This document shows, piece by piece, positions 5,955 through 38,695 of a stretch of DNA of 38,871 nt; the first letter of the stretch is position 1, and each line of letters begins with the position of its first letter. A program made the position numbers and the translations under genes. The notes beneath the pieces are model-generated. The model saw only the letters and a list, made by a program, of their open reading frames with translations. It did not search any database and was not told the origin of the DNA. Origin of the DNA: an uncultured Eubacteriales bacterium (GTDB lineage: Bacteria > Bacillota > Clostridia > Oscillospirales > Acutalibacteraceae); the NCBI GenBank assembly GCA_900316435.1, contig ONCY01000020.1, positions 1 through 38,871 of the forward strand. The letters are read 5' to 3'.

Positions 5955-6145
5955 TTTTTGCCGCCACGCGGCAGAAAGCGAAAACGTGACGTTTTATCCG
6001 TCGCGCCTTTGGATAAATCGGTTTATAGGAAAGTTCGGTATAACGGCGCATTAAAACCTTTCCGCAACAACGCAAGCTATTTCGCGGGAACGGAAGTTTT
6101 GTCAATTGCAAACACCTGATTCGCGTACTGCCCTCCCGTGGCAAC
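5955..6145 (+). repeat. Mosaic intergenic repeat, copy 1
   Basis: Modules in order: GCCGCCACGCGGC, a perfect palindrome AAAACGTGACGTTTT at 5981-5995, CGCCTTTGG, ATAAATCGGTTTATAGG, CGGTATAACGGCGC, TTCGCGGGAACGGAAG and CTGATTCGCG. The same modules in the same order are found in reverse orientation at 15290-15562, and subsets at 10670, 35173 and 38495. It fills most of the 327-base gap between the divergent murI and the zinc-ribbon gene. The two opposing reading frames across it (up to 74 codons) are not convincing genes. Confidence 0.85.
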
Positions 6146-6149
6146 GGGT

Positions 6150-6178
6150 TTGACTTTTCTATCGGCGTATGCTATGAT
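6150..6178 (+). promoter_or_regulatory. Promoter of the zinc-ribbon membrane protein gene
   Basis: TTGACT (6150-6155), a 17-base spacer and TATGAT (6173-6178) with a TGC extension. The hexamers and their inner flanks match the fab promoter at 15211-15239. Transcription would begin close to 6185, directly at the AGAGG ribosome binding site, so the leader must be very short. Confidence 0.75.
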
Positions 6179-6197
6179 TGTTTAAGAGGTGATAACA

Positions 6198-7049
6198 ATG
6201 AAATGCAGCTATTGCGGATTTACATATGACGACGAGCTTGTATGCCCTATCTGCGGTACTCCCGCGGCTCCTTTAGAGCAGACAGCACCCTTTGCGCCGC
6301 AGCCCGCGCCGACCGTTCAGGCTCCCGTTTCGGCTTCTTCTCCTTGTGTTGAGCCCGATATTGAGGAAAACAAAAAGCCCGCTGCCGCAAAAAGCGGAAA
6401 GGGACTTAAAATTGCGGCTCTGTGCGTGCTTTCGGTGATCGCGGCGGCGCTTTTGGCAAACGTGGCTATTCAGGCGTTTTCGCTTAGCGCCGAGCTGAAG
6501 CACTACAGAAAATCAGCGGATGTAATGGACAGGGAAAAAGAGCTTTACGACAAAAGCTTTAAGCTTGTTGAAAGCGAGCCCGACTTCGATTATGATTATG
6601 ACGGTTCCAATTCAGAAGGATACGGTTTGTCCGAAAAGTCCGACAATACAGTTCACAAGGTGGGCGAATCCTACGACTTCGGCTCGGGTGTAATAACTCT
6701 AAAAAGCGTCAGAGTCTCCCAGAAAACAGCTAATTTTGACAGCACAAAGCAGCAGGTCGCTTTTTTTGTAGAGGTAACAAACAACACCAATTCATCTCAA
6801 GTATACGAAATTCCCTCGCTAACGCTCGGCGAAAAGCTTGACGCCGAAGCATTCGCTTTTGCGGAGTTCAACAATTCAGGCGAGGACGTTGCGTATTCCT
6901 TTGATCCGGGCGAGAGCTGTTCCGCCGTATTCTGCTACAATCTTCCCACAGAAAACCAAACGCTCAATGTTTCGGTTTCAACTGAAAGCCAAAGCGCAAA
7001 CTGCCGTGTTGAAACGGAATACAGCCTTGAAACAAAGGACATAAAATAA
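6198..7049 (+). CDS. Zinc-ribbon, single-span membrane protein with a DUF4352-like outer domain
   Basis: A 283-residue protein of unknown function. Residues 1-20 form a four-cysteine zinc ribbon (CSYCGF and CPICGT). A proline/alanine-rich linker follows (about 25-65), then one membrane helix (about 75-97, LKIAALCVLSVIAAALLANVAIQ). The C-terminal 140 residues look like an immunoglobulin-like domain of the DUF4352 kind, with VGESYDFGSGVITLKSVRV and VAFFVEVTNNTNSSQVYEIP. The likely topology is ribbon inside and domain outside. The ATG at 6198 lies eight bases after AGAGG; a GTG at 6189 is too close. It is monocistronic, with its own promoter and terminator. Confidence 0.8.
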   Translation: MKCSYCGFTYDDELVCPICGTPAAPLEQTAPFAPQPAPTVQAPVSASSPCVEPDIEENKKPAAAKSGKGLKIAALCVLSVIAAALLANVAIQAFSLSAELKHYRKSADVMDREKELYDKSFKLVESEPDFDYDYDGSNSEGYGLSEKSDNTVHKVGESYDFGSGVITLKSVRVSQKTANFDSTKQQVAFFVEVTNNTNSSQVYEIPSLTLGEKLDAEAFAFAEFNNSGEDVAYSFDPGESCSAVFCYNLPTENQTLNVSVSTESQSANCRVETEYSLETKDIK

Positions 7050-7070
7050 TTATTGTCAGTATAACCATAC

Positions 7071-7112
7071 AAAAAACCGGCTCATCTTTAAAAGGGTGAG
7101 CCGGTCGTTTTT
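7071..7112. terminator. Bidirectional terminator between convergent genes
   Basis: ACCGGCTCA (7076-7084) pairs with TGAGCCGGT (7097-7105). A run of six A precedes the stem and a T-rich tract follows, so it can end both the plus-strand gene at 6198 and the fab/acc operon on the minus strand. Confidence 0.9.
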
Positions 7113-7116
7113 TGTA

Positions 7117-7905
7117 TTAATTTATATGCGATGTTCCAATCTTTCTGAACCGCGCGTATCTCTGCTCTGTAAGCTCTTCATCTGAGAGCATGAGGTTCTT
7201 TTCAAAGGTTCTGCCGATAAGCAGCTTAAGGCTCTCAAACATTGCACCGTCCTCAGCCTTTGGCTGGCGGATAATACGCTCAACAACGCCGAGGCTGAAC
7301 AAATCCTGAGCCGTCATTTTAAGCGCCTCTGCCGCCTGGGGAGCCTTTGAGCTGTCCTTCCAGAGGATAGACGCGCAGCCCTCGGGAGAGATTACGGAAT
7401 AAACCGAGTTTTCCATCATCCAAACCTCGTCCGAAACAGCAAGCGCAAGCGCGCCGCCGCTGCCGCCCTCGCCGATAAGAATGGTGAGGATAGGGGTTTT
7501 GAGCGTCATCATTTCCATAAGGTTTTCGGCGATTGCCTGTCCCTGACCGCGCTCCTCGGCGCCGATTCCCGGGTACGCGCCGCTTGTGTCAACAAGACAG
7601 AGCACGGGACGGTGGAACTTTTCCGCCTGCTTCATAAGGCGCAGAGCCTTACGGTAGCCCTCGGGCTGAGCCTGGCCGAAGTTGCGCTCCATGCGCTCGC
7701 GGGTGTTGCGCCCCTTTTCAATGCCGATAACGGTAACGGGCGTGTCGTAAAGCATGGCAATGCCTGCCACGATCGCCTTGTCGTCGGAGTATCTTCTGTC
7801 GCCGTGCAGCTCGATGAAGCTGTCGCCGAACATGTGAGCAATATAATCAACGGCGGTAAGCTTTTTAGCGTCGCGCGCCGCCATCACCTTTTCATATGCA
7901 GTCAT
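7117..7905 (-). CDS. accA: Acetyl-CoA carboxylase carboxyltransferase subunit alpha
   Basis: A 262-residue alpha subunit; with AccD it moves the carboxyl group from carboxybiotin to acetyl-CoA, giving malonyl-CoA. It has FIELHGDRRYSDD, the IGIEKGRNTRERMERNFG segment and VDTSGAYPGIGAEERGQG with the oxyanion-hole region GEGGSGGALALA. It lacks the N-terminal helical part (roughly 50 residues) of the Escherichia coli and Bacillus proteins, a shortening I believe is common in Clostridia. Its ATG overlaps the accD stop by four bases (ATGA), so translation is coupled. It is the last gene of the operon. Confidence 0.95.
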   Translation of the reverse strand: MTAYEKVMAARDAKKLTAVDYIAHMFGDSFIELHGDRRYSDDKAIVAGIAMLYDTPVTVIGIEKGRNTRERMERNFGQAQPEGYRKALRLMKQAEKFHRPVLCLVDTSGAYPGIGAEERGQGQAIAENLMEMMTLKTPILTILIGEGGSGGALALAVSDEVWMMENSVYSVISPEGCASILWKDSSKAPQAAEALKMTAQDLFSLGVVERIIRQPKAEDGAMFESLKLLIGRTFEKNLMLSDEELTEQRYARFRKIGTSHIN

Positions 7906-8762
7906 TGCGCCGCCTCCTTATAACCGTGCATTTTAAGCAGCTTTGCCACAGTGGATTTAAGCTTGTCGCGGCTTACGACCGCGTCGATAAAGCCCTTCTG
8001 CATTACAAACTCCGAGGTCTGGAAGTCCTTTGGAAGCTTTTGGCGCATTGTCTGCTCGATTACCCTGGGGCCCGCAAAAGCCACAAGGGTATTGGGCTCG
8101 GCAAGTATTATGTCGCCCTCCATGGCAAACGACGCCGTAACGCCGCCCGTTGTGGGGTCGGTGAGAACAGTTATGTACAAAAGCCCTGCGTCGCTGTGGC
8201 GCTTGACCGCGCCTGAGGTCTTTGCCATCTGCATAAGCGAGAGGATACCCTCCTGCATACGAGCGCCGCCCGAAACGGTGCACACTACAACAGGCAGGCG
8301 GTTCTCGGTTGCGTATTCAAAGGCGCGGGTGATTTTTTCGCCCGTGACGGTTCCCATGCTGCCCATCATAAAGCCCGCCTCCATAACGCAGAGAACGGTT
8401 TTTACTCCGCCTATAAGGCACTCGCCGCAGATAACCGATTCCTTTGCCTTTTGCTTTGCCTTTTCAAGCTTTGAGTCATAGCCCGGAAAGTCGAGGATAT
8501 TTGAGCTTGTAAGCTCGGCGTCGCGCTCGGCAAAACTTTCGCCGTCGGCAAGCATTTCAATGCGCTGCTTTGAGCTCATGCGGAAGTGGTGGCCGCACCT
8601 GGTGCACACATTAAAGTTCTCCTCCATGTCGGTAGTGAGAAGCATTGTGTTGCACTTGGGGCACTTCATCCACATTTCATCAGGCACAAACGGCACGTTC
8701 TGCTTTGCGTCGGGTGAGGATTCAAGCTCGTTTTTCGGTTTTACAAAGGCAAAAAAATCCAT
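7902..8762 (-). CDS. accD: Acetyl-CoA carboxylase carboxyltransferase subunit beta
   Basis: A 286-residue beta subunit and partner of AccA. The N-terminal zinc ribbon has CPKC (residues 34/37) and CTRC (53/56), the classic AccD feature. The crotonase-like core has GSMGTVTGEKITRAFEYA, VSGGARMQEG and LTDPTTGGVTASFAMEGD. It overlaps accA by four bases and follows accC by 67 bases. Length and motifs are standard. Confidence 0.96.
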   Translation of the reverse strand: MDFFAFVKPKNELESSPDAKQNVPFVPDEMWMKCPKCNTMLLTTDMEENFNVCTRCGHHFRMSSKQRIEMLADGESFAERDAELTSSNILDFPGYDSKLEKAKQKAKESVICGECLIGGVKTVLCVMEAGFMMGSMGTVTGEKITRAFEYATENRLPVVVCTVSGGARMQEGILSLMQMAKTSGAVKRHSDAGLLYITVLTDPTTGGVTASFAMEGDIILAEPNTLVAFAGPRVIEQTMRQKLPKDFQTSEFVMQKGFIDAVVSRDKLKSTVAKLLKMHGYKEAAQ

Positions 8763-8829
8763 AGCAATACCTTTCTTTTTGTTTGCGGCGGAAAACCTGC
8801 AAAACAGCTCCGCCGCATAATCTTAATTA

Positions 8830-10185
8830 TCAGTTATTTCTTCCGTGCTCGCGCTCAAAGTCAAGCATAAAATCGGTGGTGTATTCGCCGCTTACAAAGC
8901 GGTCGTCAGACAGGATCTCCGCAAGTATATCGCGATTGATGTCGATTCCGTCGATTGTAAGCTCCGAGAGCGCCATCTTCATTTTGCGGATTGCCTCGGC
9001 ACGGCTGCGCGCCTGAACAATCAGCTTGCCTATCATCGAATCGTAATAAGGCGGAACAACGTAGTCCTGATAAATGGCTGTATCAAAGCGCACAAAGCTG
9101 CCGCCTGGAGTATGGAGCCTCTTGATTCTGCCGCAGCTTGGGCGGAAGCCCTTTTCGGGGTTTTCGGCGTTGATGCGGCACTCGATTACATTTCCGTGGG
9201 TGAAAATGCTGTCCTGGGTGCGCGTAAGCCTTGCGCCCGCGGCAATGCGTATCTGCCACTGAACGATGTCAAGACCCGTTACCATCTCGGTAACGCCGTG
9301 CTCAACCTGCAAACGGGTGTTCATCTCCATAAAATAGAAGTTGTTGTCGTGGTCGAGCAAAAACTCAACCGTGCCCGCGTTTACATAGTGAACAGCCTTT
9401 GCCGCCTTGACAGCCGCAGCCATCATCTTTTTGCGGGTTTTCTCGTCAAGAGCAGGGCTTGGGCTTTCCTCAATCATCTTCTGGTTTTTACGCTGAACCG
9501 AACACTCGCGCTCGCCCAGGCAGATGATGTTGTTGTATTTGTCGCAAAGCAGCTGCATTTCGATGTGCTTTACGGGGTGAATGAATTTCTCTATGTAGCA
9601 CGCGCCGTCGCCAAAAGCGGATTTTGCCTCGGCGCTCGCCGAAAGGAACGCCTCCTCAAAGCGGTCGATCGAATCGACTCTGCGGATACCGCGTCCGCCG
9701 CCGCCCGAGCGCGCCTTGATAAGAAGCGGAAAACCGATTCTCTCCGCCTCGATCTTAGCCTGATTAACGTCCTCAATTACATCGCAGCCCGGAGTTACGG
9801 GAACGCCTGCCGCACGCATGGTCTTACGCGCCATGTCCTTGTCGCCGAGCATAGCGATCATATCGGAGGTGGGGCCGATAAAATTGATGTTGCACTGCTC
9901 ACAAAGCGAAACAAACTTGGCGTTCTCGCTGAGCAGTCCGTAGCCCGGGTGAATAGCCTGAGCGCCGCTTTCGACAGCGACGGTCAGAATAGCCGGGATA
10001 TTAAGATAGCTGTCCGCCACGCGGTTTCCGCCCACGCAGTAGCTTTCGTCCGCAAGCTGAACGTGCATTGCGTCCTTGTCAGCCTTTGAGTAGATAGCTA
10101 CGGTGGAAATGCCCATTTCACGGCACGCGCGGATTATTCTTACGGCGATTTCGCCGCGGTTGGCAATCAGAATTTTAGAAAACAT
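8830..10185 (-). CDS. accC: Acetyl-CoA carboxylase biotin carboxylase subunit
   Basis: A 451-residue ATP-grasp enzyme that carboxylates the biotin on AccB using bicarbonate and ATP. It has the N-terminal KILIANRGEIAVRIIRACRE, the glycine-rich ATP lid KARSGGGGRGIRRV (about 160-173), the EMNTRLQVEHGVTE metal/biotin region and the C-terminal DYVVPPYYDSMIGKLI segment. Its length is normal. The ribosome binding site is weak (GGATGTG). It lies 45 bases after fabZ in the operon. Confidence 0.96.
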   Translation of the reverse strand: MFSKILIANRGEIAVRIIRACREMGISTVAIYSKADKDAMHVQLADESYCVGGNRVADSYLNIPAILTVAVESGAQAIHPGYGLLSENAKFVSLCEQCNINFIGPTSDMIAMLGDKDMARKTMRAAGVPVTPGCDVIEDVNQAKIEAERIGFPLLIKARSGGGGRGIRRVDSIDRFEEAFLSASAEAKSAFGDGACYIEKFIHPVKHIEMQLLCDKYNNIICLGERECSVQRKNQKMIEESPSPALDEKTRKKMMAAAVKAAKAVHYVNAGTVEFLLDHDNNFYFMEMNTRLQVEHGVTEMVTGLDIVQWQIRIAAGARLTRTQDSIFTHGNVIECRINAENPEKGFRPSCGRIKRLHTPGGSFVRFDTAIYQDYVVPPYYDSMIGKLIVQARSRAEAIRKMKMALSELTIDGIDINRDILAEILSDDRFVSGEYTTDFMLDFEREHGRNN

Positions 10186-10230
10186 TTTTTCACATCCAGT
10201 AGTGATAAAGGTAAGGCGGTAGCGCCTTTA

Positions 10231-10653
10231 TTATTTCTCGTTAGGTACAAGCGCGAACGACAGCTCAGCGCAAACGCACAGCTTGCCGTCGACATAACCC
10301 TTGGCGTCGATAAAGTAGAACGATCCCCTGTTTTTGGTAAGGGTGCATACGCTCTCCAGAGTATCGCCGGGCTTTACGGGGTTTTTGAACTTTACCTTGT
10401 CCATTTTGGTAAAGTAGGGCGTGCAGTCGCTCACCTTGTCGGCGAGCAGGCAGCAGCTTGCCTGTCCCATCATTTCGCAAAGGATTACGCCCGGAACAAC
10501 GGGGTTGCCGGGAAAGTGTCCGTTCAAAAAGAACTCGTCGCCCTTTATTGTATATTTACCCTTTGCGGTGTTTTCGTCGAGCATTTCGGATTCCTCAACA
10601 AGCAGCATATCGTTGCGGTGAGGAAGTATTTTCATAATTTCCTGTTGGTTCAT
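10231..10653 (-). CDS. fabZ: 3-hydroxyacyl-ACP dehydratase FabZ
   Basis: A 140-residue hot-dog-fold dehydratase that removes water from 3-hydroxyacyl-ACP in chain elongation. The catalytic pair is His46 in NGHFPGNPVVPGVI and Glu60 in CEMMGQA; LPHRNDMLLV is the conserved N-terminal motif. The frame is open another 30 codons upstream, but those codons run through the mosaic repeat at 10670-10754. The ATG at 10653 with GGAG seven bases upstream gives the family start. The gap to accB is 101 bases, the longest inside this otherwise tight operon. Confidence 0.96.
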   Translation of the reverse strand: MNQQEIMKILPHRNDMLLVEESEMLDENTAKGKYTIKGDEFFLNGHFPGNPVVPGVILCEMMGQASCCLLADKVSDCTPYFTKMDKVKFKNPVKPGDTLESVCTLTKNRGSFYFIDAKGYVDGKLCVCAELSFALVPNEK

Positions 10654-10669
10654 ATTTTTCTCCTTTGCC

Positions 10670-10754
10670 GCCACGGGAACGTGACGTTCCATCCAAAGCC
10701 GCCTTTGGAAAACGTCTGATTCGCGCTGTGGGTCAAGCGTCACGCTTGCGCGAC
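10670..10754 (+). repeat. Mosaic intergenic repeat, copy 4 (inside the fab operon)
   Basis: GGAACGTGACGTTCC (10676-10690) is a perfect palindrome; CCAAAGCCGCCTTTGG (10693-10708) is a second hairpin; AAGCGTCACGCTT (10735-10747) is a third. The block ends at the accB stop codon. It is transcribed with the operon and could fold into consecutive RNA hairpins between accB and fabZ. Confidence 0.9.
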
Positions 10755-11189
10755 TTATTTTACCTTGAACAGCGGCTGGTCAAACTCTACCAAATCGCCG
10801 TTGTTTACAAGTACCTCGGTGATTTCGCCGTCGAATTCCGCCTGGATCTCGTTCATGCACTTCATAGCCTCGATAATGCAGACGGTGTCACCCTTGCTTA
10901 CTCTTTTGCCTACCGATACATACGGCTCGCTGTCGGGCGAGGGAGCGGCATAAAAAACGCCTACGATAGGAGCGTTGATTGTTTTTCCGCTGTCAACGGG
11001 AGCAGCCTCCTGAACGGGAGCGGGAGCGCTTACCGCGGGAGCAACAACAGCAGTGGGAGCCGCGCCTGCAACAGCCGCCGAGGGCTTTTCAAGATAAATT
11101 GAGTCTTTTCCGTCGGAAAGCTCGAGAGTCTGCAGTGAGCTTTCCTCAAGCACCTTTATGTATTCCTTAAGGGTTGCAATATCAATCAT
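10755..11189 (-). CDS. accB: Biotin carboxyl carrier protein of acetyl-CoA carboxylase
   Basis: A 144-residue carrier. Residues 1-35 form the conserved N-terminal segment ([18 protein letters not shown]), residues 36-66 are an alanine/proline linker, and residues 70-144 form the biotinyl domain. Lys110 in [11 protein letters not shown] is the biotinylation site. The residue after the lysine is cysteine where methionine or leucine is usual. AccB shuttles carboxybiotin between AccC and AccAD. It is 13 bases after fabF, and its stop adjoins the repeat described above. Confidence 0.95.
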
Positions 11190-11202
11190 TTCAATTCCTC
11201 CG

Positions 11203-12432: not shown

Positions 12433-12493
12433 TATGTAATCACTTCCTTGTATATAAGAAAATTCAGGAATTATTTGCCTTTTTCGGGATTCA

Positions 12494-12518
12494 TTAATTC
12501 CGCATTCCGAATTAAATC
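12494..12518. repeat. Short ATTCCGCATTCCGAATT repeat at the fabG 3' end
   Basis: The 17-mer at 12497-12513 recurs at 35338-35354 next to the gapdh stop. Here it overlaps the fabG stop codon (12512-12514), so the repeat supplies the TAA. In both places the flank reads GATTTAATTC on the minus strand. Confidence 0.75.
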
Positions 12519-13255: not shown

Positions 13256-13267
13256 ATGTATACCTCA

Positions 13268-15289: not shown

Positions 15290-15562
15290 ATGTCAGGCAG
15301 CGTGACGCTGCACCTAATCCGCGCAAACGTGACGCTTGACCCACGACGCGAATCATACGTTTGCGATTAACAAAACTTCTGTTCCCGCGAATTAAGTTGC
15401 GCCGTTGCAGAAACGTATTTGGGCAACCGCAAGGGTTGCCCCTACGAATGTAACAGAAATGTTTTAATGCGCCGCTATGCCGCCCCTCCCTATAAACCGA
15501 TTTTAAAATAGGCGCGCCGGATGCAACGTCACGTTGCCGCGCTTCCTGCCGCGTGGCGGCTA
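15290..15562 (-). repeat. Mosaic intergenic repeat, copy 2 (inverted, longest copy)
   Basis: Read on the minus strand it starts GCCGCCACGCGGCAGGAAGCG and then matches copy 1 module by module: a CGTGACG-centred palindrome (15523-15537), ATCGGTTTATAGG, AGCGGCGCATTAAAAC, TTCGCGGGAACAGAAG and TGATTCGCG. GCAGCGTGACGCTGC (15297-15311) is a further perfect palindrome. A REP-like hairpin is nested inside. It occupies most of the 450-base gap between fabK and the small exported protein gene, whose stop codon lies at its edge. Confidence 0.85.
15421..15445 (-). repeat. REP-like element: GTAG plus hairpin
   Basis: On the minus strand GTAG is followed by a GGGCAACC/GGTTGCCC stem with a five-base loop. 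Tetranucleotide GTAG before an imperfect palindrome is the layout of REP sequences mobilised by RAYT transposases. Only one copy is in the window and no RAYT gene is present. Confidence 0.65.
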
Positions 15563-15871
15563 ACTGCAGTAGTCCTCTAAAATGCGTTCGAGCTCCTGTT
15601 TGTTTTGTGCGTAAATACCGTTTTTCAACTTGATAATATCGGGCTTTGGCAGGGTCGAGGTGCGCGTTGAGGTCACCTTAAACGGCTTGTCCGAACCGCT
15701 TACGAACACCGCTATATTGCCGTTAAAGTCGCGGACATAATAACCCTCTGCGGTTGTTTGCTCCGCCGAAACCGCGGTTTGCGGACGCGCCGCTTCGGTT
15801 TGGGTGTAAAGGCTGCCTAAGCACACGCAGCTTATAAGAATTATCCCCGTAACAGCGACCAGTTTTTTCAT
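15560..15871 (-). CDS. Small exported protein, possibly BofC C-terminal-domain-like
   Basis: A 103-residue protein with an N-terminal hydrophobic signal or anchor (residues 3-24, LVAVTGIILISCVCLGSLY). The mature part has YYVRDFNGNIAVFVSGSDKP, a TSTLPKPDIIKLKNGIYA segment and ends ELERILEDYCS. This pattern (aromatic-rich strand, LPxxD, GI, ELxxxLEDY) resembles small clostridial proteins annotated with the BofC C-terminal domain, known from a forespore signalling protein of Bacillus; that link is tentative. The second ATG (15871) is seven bases after GGGG and preferred to the one at 15877. No operon partner. Confidence 0.65.
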   Translation of the reverse strand: MKKLVAVTGIILISCVCLGSLYTQTEAARPQTAVSAEQTTAEGYYVRDFNGNIAVFVSGSDKPFKVTSTRTSTLPKPDIIKLKNGIYAQNKQELERILEDYCS

Positions 15872-16017
15872 GTACATTCCCCTTTTGCCGAGTTCTTTAC
15901 TGCTATTATCGGCGCTAAAGTGTTAATTATTCATTCATTTTCATAAAATTAACCGCCGCTGTAGGGTTATTTTCTCAAAAAAAATTCAAATTATATATTT
16001 ATTTTTTCGCCCCGTGG

Positions 16018-16090: not shown

Positions 16091-18487
16091 ATGCGCAATA
16101 AACGTGAAACGGATATCAGTAATTATACTGATAAAACCACGGACACAACAGCATCCGAGGTTAAAACCGAAAGCGGCGCCAAGCGGTTTTTTAAGTCGCT
16201 GGGCAAGTTTTTCCTCACGGTGTTTTGTGTCTGCCTGATTGCGGGCATTATTACGGTCGTTTCGCTGGGCATTTACATCTTCCACCTTGCATCGGAACCT
16301 ACGGGTATCGACCTAAAGGCAAAGTCGATGAACCAGACCAGCCGAATCTTCGTAAAGGACAGCAAAACGGGCGAGTTCACCGAGCGGCAGAAGCTTTACG
16401 ACGTTGAAAACCGCATTTGGGTAGACTACAACGATATTCCGCAGTACATGAAGGACGCGCAGGTAACTATTGAGGACAAGCGCTTCTTTGACCACAAGGG
16501 CGTAGACTGGACGCGAACCCTGTCGGCGGTAGGCTCGCTGATAACGGGCTCCAACTCATACGGCGGCTCAACAATTACCCAGCAGCTTATAAAGAACATC
16601 ACCGACGACAACGAGGTGTCAATTACCCGAAAGCTGAGGGAGATATGCAAGGCGATAAAGCTTGAGCAGGAGTACTCAAAGGAGCAGATACTTGAAGCGT
16701 ACCTGAACGTTGTCAACTACGGCAACAACTGCCAGGGAGTCGAGGCGGCGGCGCAGCTGTACTTTGGAAAGAGCATAAAGGACTGCTCGCTTGCGCAGTG
16801 CGTGGCGATCGCGGGCATTACCCAGAACCCGTCGCACTGGAATCCGCTGATGTACCCCGAAAACAACCTGATACGCCGCGAAAACATCTTATATGAGATG
16901 TACGACCAGGGCAAGATATCCAAGGACGAACTTGATTCGGCGCTTGCCGAGTCAAAGAACATGACATTTGTGGGCTTCTCGACCGACCACGATGATGACG
17001 ACGACGAGGAAGCCGACGACAAGGTTCAAAACTGGTACTACAACCAGATGATTTATGATTTGCGCGCCGACCTTGCAAAGCTGTACAATATAAGCGAGGG
17101 CGCGGCGAGTGAGAAGATCTACACGGAAGGTCTTAACATTTACAGCGCTATGGACGAGCAGATGCAGGACTTCATCGAGTCGGCGGCGCTCAACATGGAC
17201 AAGACCCAGGATCCCGATATCCAGATAGGCTCGGTACTGATGGACTTTGACGGCAGAGTCATAGCCACGGTCGGAAGCTCGCAGCGCAAAACGGGCCCTC
17301 TTGACTGGGACCGCGCAACTCACTCAACTCTGCAGCCGGGTTCATCAATCAAGCCCGTGCTTGTTTATCCGCTTGCTATCGAAAAGCGCCAGCTCTACTT
17401 CTCGTCCCAGGTTCTGGACGAACCGCTTGAGGATTACGAAGTAACCGAATCGGGCGAGAAAAAATCGGGTCCTAGCAACGCCTACGGCTCATATCTCGGC
17501 CAGATCCTGCTGCCCGACGCTATTGAGCGCTCCTCAAACGCAACTGCGGTTCAGGTGCTCAAGATGATAGGCGGCCCCGGAGAGGCGTACGACCAGGCGA
17601 CCACCAAGATGGGCTTCAAAAAGCTTGACCAAGCCGATTCATACCAGATAGGTTCGCTTTCAATCGGCGGTATGGTAGGCGGCGTAAGTGTCCGTGAAAT
17701 GGCGGCGGCGTTCACCTACATGGGCAACGGCGGTCTGTACTACGACCCCTACACCTACTACTACGTAACCGACAGCGAGGGCAACGTCATTATTGACAAC
17801 CGCGACAAGGTTCCGCGTCAGGCTTATTCAACCGAGACCGCGTCGATTATGAACCGTCTGCTCCACTACAACATGGAGATGGTTCCCTCAACAATGCACA
17901 CCTATGCAAACTACGCCGTTATTCCCGGCTGGGATATAGTGGGCAAAACCGGTACCACCGATGACGACAAGGACTGCTGGTACTGCGGACTTTCGCCCTA
18001 CGGCGTAATGGCTACCTGGACAGGCTTTGATATTCCGGATACGATAAACGATAAAACCCGTTCGGCAAAGTTCTTCAACACGGTTATGAGCGAGTATCTT
18101 AAGGACAAAGATCCGCTCGACTACGTTCTGTCACCCAATGTTATCCCCGCTTCCTACAACCCCGTAACAGGTCTTATTGTCTCAACCGATTATGTAACGG
18201 GTCCGTATGTAGGCTACTATATTAAGGACAATATGCCCGCGTACGGCGAGCCGTATTACGAGCCTGTCACCTACGGCGATTATACACCTACCGTGCCCGA
18301 CTACACCGGCGAGCAGCCCTCTTATATTGAGCCGAGCAATCCCGGTGAGCAAAGCAGCGGCGGCGAGCAAAGCAGCGGCGGCGAACAGAGCAGCGGCGGT
18401 GAGCAAAGCAGCAGCGGCGGAGGCGACGACCAAGGCGGAGGCGACGACCAAGGCGGAGGTCAAGGCGGCGACGGCGCACAGCCATAG
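16091..18487 (+). CDS. Class A penicillin-binding protein (glycosyltransferase/transpeptidase)
   Basis: A 798-residue PBP1a-type enzyme that polymerises and cross-links peptidoglycan outside the membrane. There is a short cytoplasmic tail (1-38) and a membrane helix (about 40-65). A GT51 domain has the catalytic Glu128 in IEDKRFFDHKGVDW, GGSTITQQLIKN (158-169) and EQILEAYLNVVNYGNNCQGV. A strongly acidic insert is at 299-310. The transpeptidase domain has Ser418 in PGSSIKP, SSN (481-483) and KTGT (619-622), a complete active site. The C-terminal 50 residues are low complexity, with four GEQSSG units then GGDDQ units, as in many clostridial PBPs. GGAG precedes the ATG. Confidence 0.96.
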   Translation: MRNKRETDISNYTDKTTDTTASEVKTESGAKRFFKSLGKFFLTVFCVCLIAGIITVVSLGIYIFHLASEPTGIDLKAKSMNQTSRIFVKDSKTGEFTERQKLYDVENRIWVDYNDIPQYMKDAQVTIEDKRFFDHKGVDWTRTLSAVGSLITGSNSYGGSTITQQLIKNITDDNEVSITRKLREICKAIKLEQEYSKEQILEAYLNVVNYGNNCQGVEAAAQLYFGKSIKDCSLAQCVAIAGITQNPSHWNPLMYPENNLIRRENILYEMYDQGKISKDELDSALAESKNMTFVGFSTDHDDDDDEEADDKVQNWYYNQMIYDLRADLAKLYNISEGAASEKIYTEGLNIYSAMDEQMQDFIESAALNMDKTQDPDIQIGSVLMDFDGRVIATVGSSQRKTGPLDWDRATHSTLQPGSSIKPVLVYPLAIEKRQLYFSSQVLDEPLEDYEVTESGEKKSGPSNAYGSYLGQILLPDAIERSSNATAVQVLKMIGGPGEAYDQATTKMGFKKLDQADSYQIGSLSIGGMVGGVSVREMAAAFTYMGNGGLYYDPYTYYYVTDSEGNVIIDNRDKVPRQAYSTETASIMNRLLHYNMEMVPSTMHTYANYAVIPGWDIVGKTGTTDDDKDCWYCGLSPYGVMATWTGFDIPDTINDKTRSAKFFNTVMSEYLKDKDPLDYVLSPNVIPASYNPVTGLIVSTDYVTGPYVGYYIKDNMPAYGEPYYEPVTYGDYTPTVPDYTGEQPSYIEPSNPGEQSSGGEQSSGGEQSSGGEQSSSGGGDDQGGGDDQGGGQGGDGAQP
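18346..18477 (+). repeat. In-gene tandem repeats encoding the PBP tail
   Basis: Four near-identical 18-base units encode GEQSSG, the last with an extra serine codon, followed by two 15-base units encoding GGDDQ. Units differ mainly at synonymous positions (GGT/GGC, CAA/CAG). The region is prone to unit gain or loss. Confidence 0.8.
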
Positions 18488-28655: not shown

Positions 28656-28656
28656 A

Positions 28657-33028: not shown

Positions 33029-33092
33029 GTAATAACCTCCGTTTTCTTATATAGATTAAATTGTTTCCAATTATTTGGCTGATTTAGGCGGG

Positions 33093-34991
33093 TTACTCGT
33101 TTTCGCCCACGCATTTAAGATAGATAACGCCCATTGGCGGCAGGGTAAGCGGCAGCCCTTGGTTGCAGCCGTGGATCTTTCTCGGCACAGGTCTGATCTC
33201 GCTTCCGTTTAAAATACCCGAGCCTCCGAATTCTACCATATCGGAGCTGAAAACCTCGGCGTAAACGGCGTTTTTGGACACGCCTATAACGTATTTTTTA
33301 TGCAGAATCGGGCGGAAGTTGCACACGGCGATAATCTCGTTGTCGTCCTCGTCGGTGCGCTTGAAAGCAATTACCGAGTTGGTGTAATCGTCGTGATGGA
33401 TCCAGTCAAAACCCTTCCAGCTCGCGTCGCGCTCAAAGAACGGGCGGTTCTCAAGGTAAAACTTGTTCAGCTCACGGAAAAAGTGCTGGAGCTGGCGGTT
33501 CTTTTCGTTTTCTGTAATAGTCCAGCAAACGGGAACGCTGTATTCCCAGTTGATGACCTGACCTGTTTCGGCGCCCATAAACACCAGCTTTTTGCCGGGA
33601 TGGGCATACATATATGTAATAAAGGCGCGGTATTCGGCAAACCTGTCACGGTTCGCGGACTCAAGCCCCTTTACAAGCATTCCCTTGTCACGCGAGACCT
33701 CGTCGTGCGAGAGCGGCAACAGGAAGTGCTCGGAAAACGCGTAGAAAAAGCTGTAGGTAAGGTTGTCGTGATTGAACGGCCTCCACTGCGGATCGAGCGT
33801 CATGTAGTTTATCATGTCGTTCATCCAGCCGCCGTTCCACTTGTAGTCAAAGCCCATTCCGCCTTCTTCGATTTTATGCGTAACCTTTGACCACGATGTC
33901 TTTTCCTCGGCGAACATGAGCGCGCCGGGATGGAACATATGCACGGCGGTGTTCAGGCGCTTAACAAACTCTATGGCCTCAAGGTTTTCCTTGCCGCCGA
34001 ACCTGTTTGGCTCCCACTCACCGGCGGTCTTGCCGTAGTCGAGGTACAGCATCGACGACAGCGAGCCCACGCGCAGACCGTCAAGATGATAGTATTCAAG
34101 CCAGAAAATGGCGCATGACACCAAAAAGCTCAGCACCTCGGGCTTTGCGAAATTGAACAGGCAGGTGTCCCACGACGGGCGCTCGCCCAGCTTTGGATCC
34201 TCGTCCTCAAAAAGCGCGGTGCCGTCAAATTTTGCCAGCGCGAAGTCATCCTTCGGAAAATTTGACGGAACCCAGTCAAGGGTTACGCCGATGCCCGCCT
34301 GATGCAGCCTGTCTACAAGGTACATAAAGTCTTTGGGCTCGCCGAAACGCGAGGTCGGCGCAAAGTAGCCCGTTGTCTGATAGCCCCAGCTTCCGTCAAA
34401 GGGGAACTCCATCATCGGCATAAGCTGAACGTGGGTGTAGTGCATGTCCTTAACGTATTCGGTCAGCTCGTCGGCGTATTGGCGGTAGGAATAAAAGCTT
34501 CCGTCCTTGTTTTGCTTCCAAGAGCCGAGGTGCACCTCATAAAGGTTCATCGGCTCCTTTAGCGAATCTCTGCCGCGGCGGTTCTCCATCCATTCACTGT
34601 CGCCCCATTCATATCCGCTAAGGCTGTAAATTCTTGAAGCGCGCTTGGGCTGAACCTGAGCGAAGAACGCGAACGGATCGGCTTTTAAAATCCTCTCGCC
34701 GCCCTGAGTCAGAATGCTGAACTGATAGCTCTGCCCCTCCTCGGCGCCCTCAACAAACAGCTCCCAAGCTATTTCGTCGCAGCGGCTCATCACACCTTCA
34801 TCGCTGTTCCAGCCGTTGAAGTCGCCCACTACCGAAACGTCTGCGGCGTTCGGAGCCCACACGCGGAACAGCACGCCGTTTTTGCCGTCACGCTCCTCAA
34901 AATGCGCGCCAAAGTAGTTGTAAGCGCGCACGCTGTCGCCCTCACAAAACAATGTTATTTCGCTGCGTTCGTCGTTAAAGCTGTAGTTCAT
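33093..34991 (-). CDS. glgB: 1,4-alpha-glucan branching enzyme family protein with altered active site
   Basis: A 632-residue GH13/CBM48 protein. The N-terminal CBM48 (about 28-125) has FRVWAPNAADVSVVGDFNGWN. The barrel has MPMMEFPFDGSWGYQTTGYFAPTSRFG and VTLDWVPSNFPKDDF. Region II reads LDGLRVGSLSSMLYLDYG: Gly309 stands where the nucleophile aspartate of RVDAV is expected (GGC codon, 34067-34065). Glu362 (MFAEE) and Asp430 (LPLSHDEV) remain. The histidine after DWVPA is Asn244. It is otherwise full length, with no stop or frameshift. Overall assignment is clear; normal branching activity is doubtful. Confidence 0.9.
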   Translation of the reverse strand: MNYSFNDERSEITLFCEGDSVRAYNYFGAHFEERDGKNGVLFRVWAPNAADVSVVGDFNGWNSDEGVMSRCDEIAWELFVEGAEEGQSYQFSILTQGGERILKADPFAFFAQVQPKRASRIYSLSGYEWGDSEWMENRRGRDSLKEPMNLYEVHLGSWKQNKDGSFYSYRQYADELTEYVKDMHYTHVQLMPMMEFPFDGSWGYQTTGYFAPTSRFGEPKDFMYLVDRLHQAGIGVTLDWVPSNFPKDDFALAKFDGTALFEDEDPKLGERPSWDTCLFNFAKPEVLSFLVSCAIFWLEYYHLDGLRVGSLSSMLYLDYGKTAGEWEPNRFGGKENLEAIEFVKRLNTAVHMFHPGALMFAEEKTSWSKVTHKIEEGGMGFDYKWNGGWMNDMINYMTLDPQWRPFNHDNLTYSFFYAFSEHFLLPLSHDEVSRDKGMLVKGLESANRDRFAEYRAFITYMYAHPGKKLVFMGAETGQVINWEYSVPVCWTITENEKNRQLQHFFRELNKFYLENRPFFERDASWKGFDWIHHDDYTNSVIAFKRTDEDDNEIIAVCNFRPILHKKYVIGVSKNAVYAEVFSSDMVEFGGSGILNGSEIRPVPRKIHGCNQGLPLTLPPMGVIYLKCVGENE

Positions 34992-35061
34992 AGTAGCTGC
35001 TCCTATTGGCTCTTATCGGTAAATAGTCATAGTTATCCCAGATTATATCTTTCTAATATAT

Positions 35062-35090
35062 ATAATACCAAAAAATTCTGTGAATTTCAA
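35062..35090 (-). promoter_or_regulatory. Promoter of the glgB-glgC-glgD-glgA run
   Basis: On the minus strand TTGAAA (35090-35085), a 17-base spacer and TATTAT (35067-35062) with a TGG extension, about 70 bases before the glgB start. Confidence 0.75.
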
Positions 35091-35172
35091 GCAAATTGAA
35101 AAATTTGCAAACGAAATTTTAGTGTATTTTTTATAAAATGTTAACAAAAATATCATTCAAAGCCAAAAAAAC

Positions 35173-35286
35173 GGCCGCCACGCGGCAGGAAGCGCGCCTT
35201 TGGATAACATGCCTATAACAAATACCTTTCTGCAACGGCGCATCCAAACTCGCGGGAACGCGACATTCCATCCAAAGCCGCTTTGG
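35173..35286 (+). repeat. Mosaic intergenic repeat, copy 3
   Basis: Starts GCCGCCACGCGGCAGGAAGCG, then CGCCTTTGGATAA, CTGCAACGGCGCAT, CTCGCGGGAACG, a decayed GGAACGCGACATTCC (35255-35269) and CCAAAGCCGCTTTGG (35272-35286). It lies between the gapdh terminator and the glgB promoter. With the promoter and terminator it accounts for most of the 380-base gap 34992-35371. Confidence 0.85.
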
Positions 35287-35294
35287 TGCGCCCA

Positions 35295-35327
35295 CAAAAA
35301 AAGTGCGCCTCCAAAGAAGCGCACTTT
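35295..35327 (-). terminator. Terminator after gapdh
   Basis: On the minus strand AAAGTGCGC (35327-35319) pairs with GCGCACTTT (35308-35300), followed by a run of T. Confidence 0.88.
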
Positions 35328-35337
35328 GTTGCTTATT

Positions 35338-35371
35338 ATTCCGCATTCCGAATTCAGAATTCAGAATTAAA
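35338..35371. repeat. Short ATTCCGCATTCCGAATT repeat at the gapdh 3' end
   Basis: The same 17-mer as at 12497-12513, here at 35338-35354, followed by a tandem CAGAATT. It abuts the gapdh stop codon. Confidence 0.75.
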
Positions 35372-36400
35372 TCACAGCTCTGCGAAATACTTAATTGTTC
35401 TTACCATCTGGCTGGTATAAGAGTTCTCGTTATCGTACCAGGAAACAACCTGAACCTCATAGAGGTCGTCTGCAACCTTGGAAACCATGGTCTGGGTAGC
35501 GTCAAAGAGTGAGCCGTATCTCATACCGATAACGTCGGAAGAAACGATGGGATCCTCGTTGTAGCCGAAGGACTCGGAAGCAGCAGCCTTCATAGCGGCG
35601 TTGATGCCTTCAACGGTAACGTCTGTGCCCTTAACAACAGCTGTAAGGATAGTTGTTGAACCTGTGGGAACGGGAACACGCTGAGCTGAGCCGATGAGCT
35701 TGCCGTCGAGCTCGGGGATAACAAGGCCGATAGCCTTTGCAGCGCCTGTGGAGTTGGGAACGATGTTTGCAGCGCCGGCTCTTGCACGTCTGAGGTCGCC
35801 CTTTCTGTGAGGACCGTCAAGGATCATCTGATCGCCTGTGTAAGCGTGGATTGTGCTCATGATACCGCTCTGGATGGGAGCATACTTGTTAAGAGTATCA
35901 GCCATGGGAGCAAGGCAGTTAGTTGTGCAGGAAGCAGCGGAGATGATGGTGTCCTCAGCGGTGAGAACGTTCTCGTTTACGCTGAATACGATAGTGGGAA
36001 GGTCTTTGCCCGCGGGAGCGGAGATAACAACCTTCTTAGCGCCTGCGTCGATGTGAGCCTGGCTCTTAGCCTTTGAGCAGTAGAAACCTGTGCACTCCAG
36101 AACAACGTCTACGCCGATCTCGCCCCAGGGAAGCTCAGCAGCGTTGGGCTTAGCATAAATTGTGATTTCCTTGCCGTCAACAATGATTGAGTTCTCGCCT
36201 GCCTCTACGGTGTGAAGATTCTCGCCGATAGTACCGCAGTAGCCCTTCTGAGCTGTGTCGTACTTAAGCAGGTTAGCAAGCATTTTGGGATCGGTAAGAT
36301 CGTTGATAGCAACAACCTCGTAACCCTCTGCGCCGAACATCTGACGGAACGCAAGACGTCCGATACGGCCGAAGCCGTTAATTGCAACTTTTACTGACAT
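35372..36400 (-). CDS. gap: Glyceraldehyde-3-phosphate dehydrogenase, type I
   Basis: A 342-residue glycolytic enzyme converting glyceraldehyde-3-phosphate to 1,3-bisphosphoglycerate with NAD. It has [19 protein letters not shown], the active-site Cys158 in [42 protein letters not shown] and the C-terminal [20 protein letters not shown]. Codon 33 region AINDLTD has the aspartate typical of NAD preference. It has its own promoter and terminator, so it is monocistronic. Codon choice is strongly biased, as expected for an abundant protein. Confidence 0.97.
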
Positions 36401-36430
36401 AAAAATTCCTCCTAAAAATAAGATAAGTTT

Positions 36431-36459
36431 ATTATATTACATTTTTTCGTTTTCTTCAA
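36431..36459 (-). promoter_or_regulatory. Promoter of gapdh
   Basis: On the minus strand TTGAAG (36459-36454), a 17-base spacer and TATAAT (36436-36431). The ribosome binding site AGGAGG lies at 36413-36408. Confidence 0.75.
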
Positions 36460-36603
36460 TAGTTTGCCAAAAAAATAACACCTTTTTTTGAAATTTTTTC
36501 CAACTGTCAGCAATAATTGTTTGATTAATAGAATTTTCATGTCGGCGGCATGTACTTTATTGCTGAAATAGAATTATTTTTTACAAAACTATCACTTTTC
36601 TTA

Positions 36604-36632
36604 TTGACATTCAATTGTTTTTATTATAGAAT
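36604..36632 (+). promoter_or_regulatory. Strong promoter upstream of RNase Y or a small RNA
   Basis: Consensus TTGACA (36604-36609), a 17-base spacer and TAGAAT (36627-36632). It starts about 250 bases before the RNase Y gene, so it makes either a long leader or a separate small RNA. Confidence 0.75.
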
Positions 36633-36637
36633 AACTG

Positions 36638-36720
36638 TAGACTCTATAACTATGGGGTTTGCAATTGTATGCCTCCGTCAAAGAAGGCGGGAGCTGCGAT
36701 TCGCTTTTTTTAATCAGACT
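36638..36720 (+). ncRNA. Candidate small RNA or attenuated leader
   Basis: The stretch after the promoter contains GC-rich segments (GCCTCCG, GGCGGGAGC) that can partly pair, followed by CGATTCGC and a run of seven T at about 36704-36711. This looks like a short transcript with a weak intrinsic terminator. The 76-codon reading frame over it is not convincing. The rest of 36401-36891 is AT-rich with nothing recognised. Confidence 0.35.
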
Positions 36721-36891
36721 CTTTCAGGAGCCGTTATATATAGATATTTTTTAATTATTATTTATCCCTTTTTATATTAAATTGAAAAATATTATATTCC
36801 TACAATTGAATATTATGTAACGGCACCGAAAGGTTTTGTTTAGATTAAAGCTGTTTAACTTTAAAAAATGAAACAAGGAGGTGTCAGGGAG

Positions 36892-38448
36892 ATGGTTAGT
36901 GTAGTGATTTTGATCATAGGCATTGTCGCTGCCGCTGTCGTCGGTATTGCTTTGGGCATTTTTGTTGGTATTACCATAAGGAAGAATACCGCCGAAAAAG
37001 AAATAGGCAGCGCCGAAGAGGAAGCAAAGCGCATTGTTTCCGATGCTATCAAAAACGCCGAGGCTAAGAAGAAAGAACTTGTGCTTGAGGGTAAAGAAGA
37101 GGTTCACCGCTTCCGCAACGAGAGCGAGAAGGAAATCGCCGACCGCAGACGCGAGGTTCAGCGCCAGGAGCGCCGTATCCAGCAGAAAGAGGAAACGCTT
37201 GACCGCAAGCTCGATAATGTCGAGAAGAAGGACGAAAAGGTTTCCCGCAAGATCAAAGAAGCCGACGCAAAGCTTGAAGAGATTGAAACCATCAAGAAAA
37301 GCCAGTTTGAAATGCTGGAAAAAATCTCGGGTTATACAGCCGAGCAGGCAAAAAGTTACTTACTCTCCCAATTGGAAAACGAGCTGACTCACGAAAAATC
37401 CGTGAAGATCATGGAATATCAGGAGCAGCTGAAAGACGAAGCCGACGAAAAGGCAAGAAACATTATTTCACTTTCCATTCAGAAGCTTGCCGCGGAATAT
37501 GTCGCGGAGGCTACGATTTCGGTAGTACCGCTTCCCAATGACGAAATGAAGGGCCGCATTATCGGCCGCGAGGGAAGAAACATCAAGGCTATAGAAACGC
37601 TTACGGGCGTCGATCTTATTATCGACGATACTCCCGAGGCAATCACACTCTCGTGCTTTGAGCCGGTTAGGCGTGAGGTAGCGAGGATCGCCTTGGAGCG
37701 CCTTATTTCCGACGGAAGAATCCATCCCGCCAGAATTGAGGAAACAATTGAAAAAGCACGCCGTGAGGTCGACTCTACCATCAAGCGTGATGGCGAGCGC
37801 GCCGTGCTTGAGCTCGGCATTCACAATATTCATCCCGAGCTTGTCAAGCTGCTCGGCCGCTTGCGTTACCGCACCAGCTACGGCCAGAATGTGCTTAAGC
37901 ACTCTATCGAGGTAGCGTACCTTGCGGGTATGATGGCAAGCGAGCTCGGAATCGATCCCACGCTCGCAAAACGCGCGGGTCTGCTGCATGACATAGGCAA
38001 ATCAATCGACCACGAGGTTGAGGGAACACACATCCAAATCGGTGTTGACCTCGCCAGAAAATACAAGGAGAGCGATGCGGTCATCCACGCTATCCACGCT
38101 CACCACGGCGACGTAGAGGCTAAAACGATTGTCGCAATTCTCGTTCAGGCTGCCGACGCGCTTTCAGCAGCACGCCCGGGCGCAAGACGCGAGAACGTTG
38201 AAAACTACATCAAGCGCCTGCAAAAGCTTGAGGAGGTTGCCTCATCATTTGACGGCGTTGAAAACTGCTACGCTATTCAGGCGGGACGCGAGGTTCGCGT
38301 TATGGTCAAGCCTGAATCCGTTAAGGACGAGCGCATGATCCCCCTCGCAAGAGAGATCTGTAAAAAGATTGAGGAAGAGCTTGAGTATCCCGGTCAGATC
38401 AAGGTTAATATCATCCGCGAGAGCCGGGCGGCAGAGTTTGCAAAATAG
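36892..38448 (+). CDS. rny: Ribonuclease Y
   Basis: A 518-residue membrane-anchored endoribonuclease that starts mRNA decay. The N-terminal helix (about 4-27) anchors it; residues 30-180 form a long charged coiled coil. The KH domain has [17 protein letters not shown] (219-235). The HD domain has [21 protein letters not shown] (His366-Asp367) and IHAHHGDVE. The length and the C-terminus are normal. The ATG at 36892 is ten bases after AAGGAGG and gives the family start; the upstream ATG (36868) precedes that site. It has its own terminator. Confidence 0.96.
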
Positions 38449-38467
38449 AATTAAACAGTTAAAATCG

Positions 38468-38495
38468 TCCCCTGCTTTTCAGCAGGGGATTTTTT
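38468..38495 (+). terminator. Terminator after RNase Y
   Basis: TCCCCTGCT (38468-38476) pairs with AGCAGGGGA (38481-38489) around TTTC, followed by TTTTTT. It leads directly into the repeat block. Confidence 0.93.
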
Positions 38496-38695
38496 GCCGG
38501 GAACGTGACGTTCCATCCAAAGCCGCCTTTGGAAAAATTGATATAACAAAAACGTTTTACTAACGGCGTGCCCAATCTCGCGGGTCGCCATGTTTAATCA
38601 ATCTAAAACGTCTGATGCGCGTCCTGAAAGTCGCGTCACGCGACCGCCTTTTGACAAATCGGTTTATAGGAAAACTCGGTATAACGGCGCAGCTT
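38495..38695 (+). repeat. Mosaic intergenic repeat, copy 5
   Basis: GGAACGTGACGTTCC (38500-38514) and CCAAAGCCGCCTTTGG (38517-38532) are shared almost letter for letter with the fab-operon copy. Then follow CTAACGGCGTGC, ATCTCGCGGG, AACGTCTGATGCGC, a perfect GTCGCGTCACGCGAC (38630-38644), and AAATCGGTTTATAGG with CGGTATAACGGCGCA, which are shared with copy 1. Modules are in a different order from copies 1 and 2. Confidence 0.85.

What the first reader, a model, noticed from the sequence alone, without database searches (positions are those of the whole stretch)
5981..38644. Palindromes with an invariant CGTSACG centre and co-varying arms in five intergenic regions
Six perfect palindromes of 15 bases and one of 13 share CGTGACG or CGTCACG in the centre but differ in the arms: AAAA/TTTT (5981), GGAA/TTCC (10676 and 38500), AAG/CTT (10735), GCAG/CTGC (15297), GCAA/TTGC (15523), GTCG/CGAC (38630). 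A decayed copy is at 35255. Arms change on both sides together, which suggests selection for pairing around a fixed core. This could be a hairpin read as RNA, or a protein site. I do not recognise it as a described element.
Basis: partly seen in the sequence, partly recalled or inferred. Interest (0 to 1): 0.75.

Follow-up and report, generated by a model that had tools for sequence, protein, structure and literature searches.

The report
Repeat element with swappable hairpin ends
The palindromes are the end pieces, predicted to fold into small hairpins, of a roughly 145-base repeat with about 120 full or partial matches in this bacterium's genome; the end pieces differ between copies and between relatives yet mostly stay perfectly self-complementary, and the repeat is likely a mobile element copied by an enzyme not yet identified.

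Summary
All seven palindromes are in the window and all are 15 bp (the '13' is CAAGCGTCACGCTTG). They are not free-standing sites. They are the terminal inverted repeats (6-bp stem, 3-nt loop) of a dispersed mosaic repeat of about 145 bp. A model of 26 units finds 123 full or partial matches in the own genome and matches in 70 of 120 genus genomes. In the own genome and close relatives pairing is kept while all six stem pairs vary, including the CGT/ACG 'core'; the TGA/TCA loop is mostly fixed. In some more distant species the loop differs too. Among 52 orthologous edges judged, 7 carry a different perfect hairpin (5 with flanks aligned up to the edge), 20 the same, and 19 no perfect hairpin. 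This argues for a folded single strand and against a double-stranded protein site. Copies avoid genes; presence and module content differ between relatives. The best reading is a REPIN/BIME-like non-autonomous element. It lacks the GTAG/CGTC tag, shows no link to RAYT genes, and reverses the REPIN pattern: the body is conserved and the end hairpins vary. The mobilising enzyme, and any RNA role, are untested.

The parts
5960..6148 (+). Copy 1: outer hairpin GCCGC-CAC-GCGGC (5960-5972), then a unit with A-end AAAACG-TGA-CGTTTT (5981-5995), body, and B-end CCCGT-GGCA-ACGGG (6135-6148)
   Evidence: model R1 match 5981-6148, E 7.5e-19
10676..10748 (+). Copy 2: A-end GGAACG-TGA-CGTTCC (10676-10690) and B-end CAAGCG-TCA-CGCTTG (10734-10748), 72 bp shorter inside than the orthologous 145-bp unit in G006 (L090); lies between a biotin-carrier-like gene (10755-11189) and a FabA-domain gene (ORF 10231-10743, whose real start is judged to lie near 10651), both on the minus strand
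   Evidence: R1 match 10676-10722, E 5.0e-8
15297..15560 (-). Copy 3, composite: GCAGCG-TGA-CGCTGC (15297-15311), near-perfect CAAACGTGACGCTTG (15324-15338), GCAACG-TCA-CGTTGC (15523-15537), GCCGC-GTG-GCGGC (15548-15560); touches the stop codon of ORF 15560-15877 (no Pfam match)
   Evidence: R1 match 15324-15421, E 5.0e-21; same length in G006
35174..35286 (+). Copy 4, decayed: GCCGC-CAC-GCGGC (35174-35186) and GGAACGCGACATTCC (35255-35269), followed by CCAAAGCCGCTTTGG (35272-35286)
   Evidence: R1 match 35174-35268, E 3.9e-16
38500..38644 (+). Copy 5, full unit: A-end GGAACG-TGA-CGTTCC (38500-38514), body, B-end GTCGCG-TCA-CGCGAC (38630-38644)
   Evidence: R1 match over all 144 model positions, E 9.2e-35; one of the 26 units the model was built from
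38645..38749 (+). Partial second module joined to copy 5 (38645-38691 is 91% like 6004-6050)
   Evidence: the repeat finder D3; R1 match 38630-38749, E 2.5e-5
38466..38495 (+). Hairpin CCCCTGCTTTTCAGCAGGGG plus a T run (looks like an intrinsic terminator) just before copy 5; not part of the repeat
   Evidence: sequence; judged by eye, no terminator scan was run

Best explanation
The palindromes are the terminal 15-base inverted repeats, predicted to fold as hairpins of 6 bp with a 3-nt loop, of a dispersed mosaic repeat of about 145 bp that is likely a REPIN/BIME-like non-autonomous mobile element, mobilised in trans by an unidentified enzyme that would recognise the folded single strand. Shown: two inward-facing terminal inverted repeats; a conserved body of about 115 bp; joint change of both stem sides at all six pairs; many dispersed copies; presence/absence and module differences between relatives; different end hairpins at the same edge in two relatives. 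Inferred: that the fold forms in single-stranded DNA (probably at replication), that a hairpin-binding nuclease/transposase cuts at the hairpin foot, and that copies spread this way. RAYT is not supported as that enzyme. Once inserted 3' of genes or between genes of an operon, the hairpins would be transcribed and could also protect or attenuate mRNA, as proposed for REPs; this was not tested.
For: Body-anchored sampling: 145 of 176 A-end and 52 of 91 B-end sites form all six pairs; each pair's count exceeds the highest of 2,000 shuffles. On 44 distinct 15-mers 90.9% of cells pair against 63.5% shuffled, covariation score 0.687 against 0.186, 67 double-change cells against 18.1, and each of the six pairs occurs in two to four Watson-Crick types. 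123 full or partial matches in the own genome, 150 of 993 candidates scored; 70 of 120 genus genomes; pattern 47 in G000 and 39 in G006, 0 in the reversed control. Ten more distant genomes: 25 of 37 A ends and 29 of 37 B ends fully paired, 0.0006 of interior windows. Different perfect hairpins at the same edge, with flanks aligned up to the edge: GCAGCG to GTCGCG, GCCCT to GCCGC, GCAACG to CCCGC, GCCGC to CCCAT, GCCGC to GGAACG. Absence or replacement: L082 element absent in L244, L075 element replaced by a terminator-like region in L179, L069 element absent in L175. Hairpin modules differ in tandem number: one, two and three in L038, L134, L110, the extra ones imperfect. Avoids genes. Model matches on both strands of one place, as an inverted dimer gives.
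Against: No mobilising gene found: no hit in G000 to the RAYT-like protein of G006, and one Y1 transposase there without these ends. No clean insertion with a target duplication was seen; the absences have imprecise edges, and gain was not told from loss. At 28 of 52 judged edges a perfect hairpin stands at the same place in G006, so movement is not frequent; at 19 of 52 no perfect hairpin stands there, so pairing is also lost at some edges. Half-versus-half symmetry of the body is modest (25.1 against 17.4, sd 5.2). A/T-rich stems are weak hairpins (AAAACGTGACGTTTT -1.4 kcal/mol as RNA, -3.2 as DNA).
Confidence: 0.6

Rival explanations
1. RNA element: the hairpins act in mRNA 3' ends and between genes of operons (stabilising ends, attenuating), selection for the RNA fold keeps the pairing, and spread is incidental.
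For: Element clusters lie in 19 convergent, 39 tandem and 7 divergent gaps, against 54, 362 and 56 gaps overall. 15 of 77 stop-facing edges touch or overlap the stop codon against 7.2 expected for uniform placement; four lie where the TGA of the loop would itself be the stop codon (distance -9). A copy lies within a fatty-acid gene cluster. The body folds better than column shuffles (-27.2 against -5.1, sd 2.7).
Against: Seven clusters lie in divergent gaps. AAAA/TTTT stems are very weak as RNA (-1.4 kcal/mol). No Rfam family matches at its cut-off. The enrichment at stop codons is only about twofold. It does not explain dispersal or end swapping.
Confidence: 0.2
2. Palindrome correction without function: template switching inside quasi-palindromes rewrites one arm from the other, so palindromes stay perfect with no selection on a fold.
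For: Both arms differ together at orthologous edges with nearly identical flanks (GCCCT-CAC-AGGGC against GCCGC-CAC-GCGGC, L072/L104), and few sites have one pair broken (11 of 176 A-end sites with five pairs). A decayed copy changed symmetrically even in its core (GGAACATGATGTTCC, L082).
Against: Does not explain the near-fixed loop and its orientation (TCA in 154 of 176 A-end sites), swaps of hairpin together with linker, the fixed 6+3+6 size, or the conserved body.
Confidence: 0.13
3. Site for a dimeric double-stranded-DNA-binding protein with core CGTSACG.
For: In G000 and G006 the centre is mostly CGTSACG.
Against: The supposed core covaries (GTCGGC, GTCGAC, AAAACC, GGAACT stems with the same loop), and some other species carry end hairpins with no CGTSACG at all. 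Symmetric but variable arms are not expected of a degenerate dimer site.
Confidence: 0.03
4. A classical REP/REPIN family mobilised by a RAYT.
For: Short hairpins in inverted dimers, extragenic, with complementary stem changes, as described for REPs (PMC3733652, PMC3116915). RAYT-like genes exist in the genus: 7 of 24 genomes match the protein.
Against: No GTAG and one CGTC within 6 nt of 256 hairpins. The own genome has 123 matches and no RAYT hit, while G012 has 3 matches and four RAYT matches, two of them adjacent pieces. Of 19 RAYT/TnpA loci tested, one gave a weak R1 match, E 0.005. G000 is 97% complete, so a missing gene is not excluded.
Confidence: 0.04

Closest known systems
REPINs (REP doublets forming hairpins), Bertels and Rainey 2011, PMC3116915 (passages seen)
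   Same: Inverted pair of terminal repeats around a spacer, extragenic, tandem clusters, complementary changes, proposed ssDNA or mRNA fold, non-autonomous.
   Different: In REPINs the ends are a highly conserved 16-mer and the spacer varies; here the body is conserved and the end hairpins vary. No GTAG, no linked RAYT.
GTAG- and CGTC-tagged REPs, Di Nocera 2013, PMC3733652 (abstract and passages seen)
   Same: 20-40 bp hairpins with sub-families differing by complementary stem changes, often inverted dimers, mainly downstream of genes; CGTC REPs also lack a dedicated transposase.
   Different: Neither tag is present; the end hairpins are attached to a body of about 115 bp; words beginning Clostridi, Ruminococc and Firmicutes do not occur in that paper's main text.
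BIMEs of E. coli (as described in PMC8266576, passages seen)
   Same: Mosaic combinations of different palindromic units with linkers.
   Different: Different sequences and tags; BIME units are GTAG REPs.
Group 3 TnpAREP substrate (S. maltophilia REPtron Sm, PMC8266576, passages seen)
   Same: Perfect palindrome with a 3-nt loop in which certain loop positions tolerate no change; a tetranucleotide stands 5' of the hairpin, where GGAT, GGGT or GTCC mostly stands here.
   Different: The tag is GTAG there; no enzyme is known here; the loop differs between some species here.

Membership tests
REP (GTAG/CGTC super-families) | GTAG or CGTC tag beside the hairpin | tested here: not met
   256 perfect TGA-loop hairpins: 0 GTAG, 1 CGTC and 1 CTAC within 6 nt; linkers are GGAT 152, GGGT 39, GTCC 18 (the GGAT share is inflated because fetched loci by ATCC)
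REP (GTAG/CGTC super-families) | Many extragenic short hairpins with complementary stem changes | tested here: met
REPIN | Two inverted end repeats around a spacer, spreading as one unit | tested here: inconclusive
   Inverted ends and unit length met; spreading as a unit inferred only
REPIN | Strongly conserved end sequence, variable spacer | tested here: not met
   Body columns CGCC, ACGGCG, CGCG are invariant in A1 while the four outer stem pairs vary; C5, G6, C10, G11 of the A-end hairpin are invariant in A1 too, their changes are seen in the wider sets
REPIN | Associated RAYT | tested here: not met
BIME | Mosaic of different palindromic units and linkers | tested here: met
IS200/IS605-derived miniature element | Ends shared with a TnpA-bearing element in the genome | tested here: not met
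   The single TnpA found in G000 (L206, 3,357 bases held) has no CGTNACG and no R1 match in its locus
Known structured RNA | Rfam covariance match | tested here: not met
   No match at gathering score in the window; best match in four loci with copies E 0.095, 24.4 bits against a cut-off of 45

The most novel reading that the evidence does not exclude
An unknown single-strand hairpin-processing enzyme exchanges the end hairpins of this repeat in place, so that the hairpins are interchangeable caps on a conserved body: a kind of miniature mobile element in which the fold of the ends, not their sequence, is what is recognised and inherited.
Probability: 0.25. Interest if true: 0.82.

Novelty: new variant of a known kind. 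Interest (0 to 1): 0.6.

Why it matters
It is a large family of interspersed palindromic repeats in the Clostridia (a group whose name does not occur in the REP survey consulted here) with direct orthologous evidence that the fold of the ends can be kept while the sequence changes. It gives a natural set of stem and loop variants for finding what recognises a folded strand, and it makes one question testable: how REP-like repeats spread where no RAYT is linked to them.

Tried and rejected
Y1/IS200 transposase as the mobiliser: one in G000, without these ends. RAYT as the mobiliser: no tracking of copy number and no ends nearby. Rfam: nothing at cut-off. A phylum-wide DNA pattern: 0 of 397 other genomes, so the exact sequence is narrow. 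In the 39-genome search 8 genomes matched; the hits in G004 and G026 are not hairpins. Four viral contigs and one Verrucomicrobia contig hold the pattern; not followed. RNAalifold of whole units gave -7.2 against -0.2 for shuffled columns, with short stems only; the body alone with more species gave -27.2 against -5.1, but its stems hardly vary (double changes in at most 4 of 64 rows at any pair), so it says little. Target duplication: none seen in the absence cases. Insertion exactly at stop codons looked striking, but a uniform-placement control cut it to about twofold. Literature: searches listed no paper on this family by title or abstract start (one search listed 20 of 58); the library lacks most subscription journals.

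Rows left out before counts: one search used 44 of the 85 distinct 15-mers (the rest looked unrelated to the family); one search used 37 matches from 36 of 40 loci (L303, L304, L310, L320 left out); the A1 model used 26 of 41 units found (length outliers, reversed or nested rows, and L137 dropped). In one search one of 8 'different hairpin' rows (L066/L098) is the same hairpin out of register, two more (L001/L101, L079 minus strand/L086) have flanks that do not align up to the edge, and two of 20 'same' rows look like chance hairpins. Ends were placed by a model that contains the hairpins, so they lean towards pairing. One search scored at most 26 candidates a genome, so its copy numbers are lower bounds.
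Full report
Observation. CGTSACG is in excess in the window (15 against 4.67) and in the genome (263 against 173 for the reversed control). In the stretches of the own genome (G000) held, 60 of 143 CGTNACG cores are palindromes of 15 bp or more, 0.56 being expected; in those of G006 63 of 123. These stretches were chosen because they hold copies, so the densities are not genome-wide.

What the palindromes belong to. Aligning the sites showed that the palindromes border a repeat. At both ends the hairpin faces inward (CGTGACG read from outside to inside). The unit is hairpin A, a linker, a conserved body, a linker and hairpin B, with 129-134 bases between cores in most full units. Other hairpins stand at the same ends: GCCGC-CAC-GCGGC at the A end, and GTCGGC-TCA-GCCGAC, GTCGT-GGCA-ACGAC or CCCGT-GGCA-ACGGG at the B end. 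A covariance model of 26 units (R1) gives 123 matches at E<=1e-3 in the own genome, partial units included, 150 of 993 candidates being scored, and matches in 70 of 120 genomes of the genus, the own one counted. Its E-values are rough. An exact pattern of the A end occurs 47 times in G000, 39 in G006 and 8 in G008, with 0 in the reversed control, and a longer form of it in none of 397 other genomes of the phylum. Named carriers listed are mostly rumen and gut Clostridia (Ruminococcus-like MAGs, Lachnoclostridium sp. MSJ-17, Ruminococcaceae bacterium P7). G006 appears to be RUG447, because contig lengths such as 42,905 agree.

Covariation. To avoid selecting on the core I anchored on the body and read the adjacent 15 bases. 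All six pairs form in 145 of 176 A-end and 52 of 91 B-end sites; for each pair the paired count exceeds the highest of 2,000 shuffles, and registers slid by 1-3 mostly pair far less, a few columns excepted. On 44 distinct 15-mers: 90.9% of cells paired against 63.5%, covariation score 0.687 against 0.186, 67 double-change cells against 18.1, none of 500 shuffles reaching these three; 'pairs with a change on both sides' (6 of 6) was reached by 97 of 500 shuffles and 'further pair types' (17) by 9 of 500; slid versions pair in 30-47% of cells. All six pairs, including the two nearest the loop, occur as different Watson-Crick types there. The loop is TCA in 154 of 176 A-end and 58 of 91 B-end sites. 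In ten more distant genomes of the genus 25 of 37 A ends and 29 of 37 B ends are fully paired against 0.0006 of interior windows; most keep the TGA/TCA loop, but 7 of 25 and 5 of 29 do not, for example CCCGCG-ACA-CGCGGG, CCCGTG-AGC-CACGGG, GTCGAG-TGC-CTCGAC and GCAGCG-ACG-CGCTGC. The ends were placed by the model, which leans towards pairing. So what is conserved across the genus is a 6+3+6 hairpin, not one sequence.

Comparison of relatives. Of 97 outermost hairpins in G000, 52 could be judged in the G006 sample (829 kb); the rest lacked a flank (29), a unique flank (13) or length (3). Of the 52, 20 have the same hairpin, 7 a different perfect hairpin (plus one register artefact), 19 no perfect hairpin there, and 5 a flank that diverges before the edge. 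In five of the 7 the flank aligns up to the edge: GCAGCG to GTCGCG (140-base flank, about 100% identical), GCAACG-TGA-CGTTGC to CCCGC-CAC-GCGGG (99%), GCCGC to GGAACG (96%), GCCGC to CCCAT (92%), and GCCCT-CAC-AGGGC to GCCGC-CAC-GCGGC (91%). The 19 edges without a perfect hairpin are a mixture of rearranged modules, single-base damage and absence, and speak against flawless upkeep of pairing. The window copy at 10676-10748 is 72 bp shorter than its 145-bp orthologue. Hairpin modules of 25-28 bp differ in tandem number. The L082 element is absent from L244, the L075 element from L179 and the L069 element from L175, without clean duplicated targets; gain was not told from loss.

Context. With a simple ORF caller (513 genes, 79% coding), 118 of 121 fully paired CGTSACG sites lie outside genes, against 21 of 63 sites with 0-2 pairs. 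Element clusters: 39 in tandem, 19 in convergent, 7 in divergent gaps, 6 inside or overlapping predicted genes, 10 at stretch edges. Edges at stop codons are about twice the uniform expectation, 15 of 77 against 7.2. In the window, copy 2 lies between a biotin-carrier-like and a FabA-domain gene, and copy 5 follows a terminator-like hairpin.

Mechanism. The need for pairing with free sequence argues for a folded single strand. Inverted ends, dispersed copies and remodelling suggest a non-autonomous element of the REPIN/BIME kind. TnpAREP enzymes are known to read a hairpin with a short loop plus a 5' tetranucleotide (PMC8266576, passages seen); here GGAT, GGGT or GTCC mostly stands in that place. 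RAYT is not supported: no hit in G000, no agreement between RAYT and copy number, and of 19 RAYT/TnpA loci one weak match, E 0.005. The enzyme is therefore unidentified, and the transposition step is inferred. Correction of quasi-palindromes by template switching could add to the joint arm changes, and an RNA role 3' of genes is possible; both are kept as rivals.

Compared with what is known. REPINs have conserved ends and a variable spacer (PMC3116915, passages seen); this family has the reverse. Tagged REPs carry GTAG or CGTC (PMC3733652, abstract and passages seen); these hairpins do not. I therefore call it a new variant of a known kind.

Noticed in passing
window 15271 (+) and 15445 (-): GTAG-tagged REP-like hairpins (GTAGTGACAGGGCTTGCCCATGTCA; GTAGGGGCAACCCTTGCGGTTGCCC) stand beside or inside copy 3: a second, classical-looking REP family. 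A similar repeat lies just downstream of a RAYT-like gene in G006 (L089 12440-12913).
   Followed up: partly
L089:12440-12913 and L098:7124-7603 (G006): Two RAYT-like genes in G006; no hit with the first of them in G000.
   Followed up: partly
window 1937-1990: Inverted repeat with arms containing CAGTGATTAGTGATGTTT; similar TTAGTGATTAGTG stretches occur beside elements in L076, L095 and L102, so probably another dispersed repeat.
   Followed up: no
window 18329-18419: 18-bp tandem repeat near the 3' end of the penicillin-binding-protein-like gene 16091-18487.
   Followed up: no
L031 and L091: A G000 locus and a G006 locus match at 100% in both flanks while the stretch between the flanks differs by 81 bases; recent exchange or mixed assembly bins.
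   Followed up: no
L202-L205 and L123: Four IMG/VR contigs and one Verrucomicrobia contig hold AACGTGACGTTNNATCC followed by what looks like a further short hairpin; chance or a distant relative.
   Followed up: no
256 TGA-loop hairpins in sampled loci: The base just outside the hairpin on the inward strand is G in 173 of 256, a possible cleavage-site preference; orthologous copies were not thinned out.
   Followed up: no
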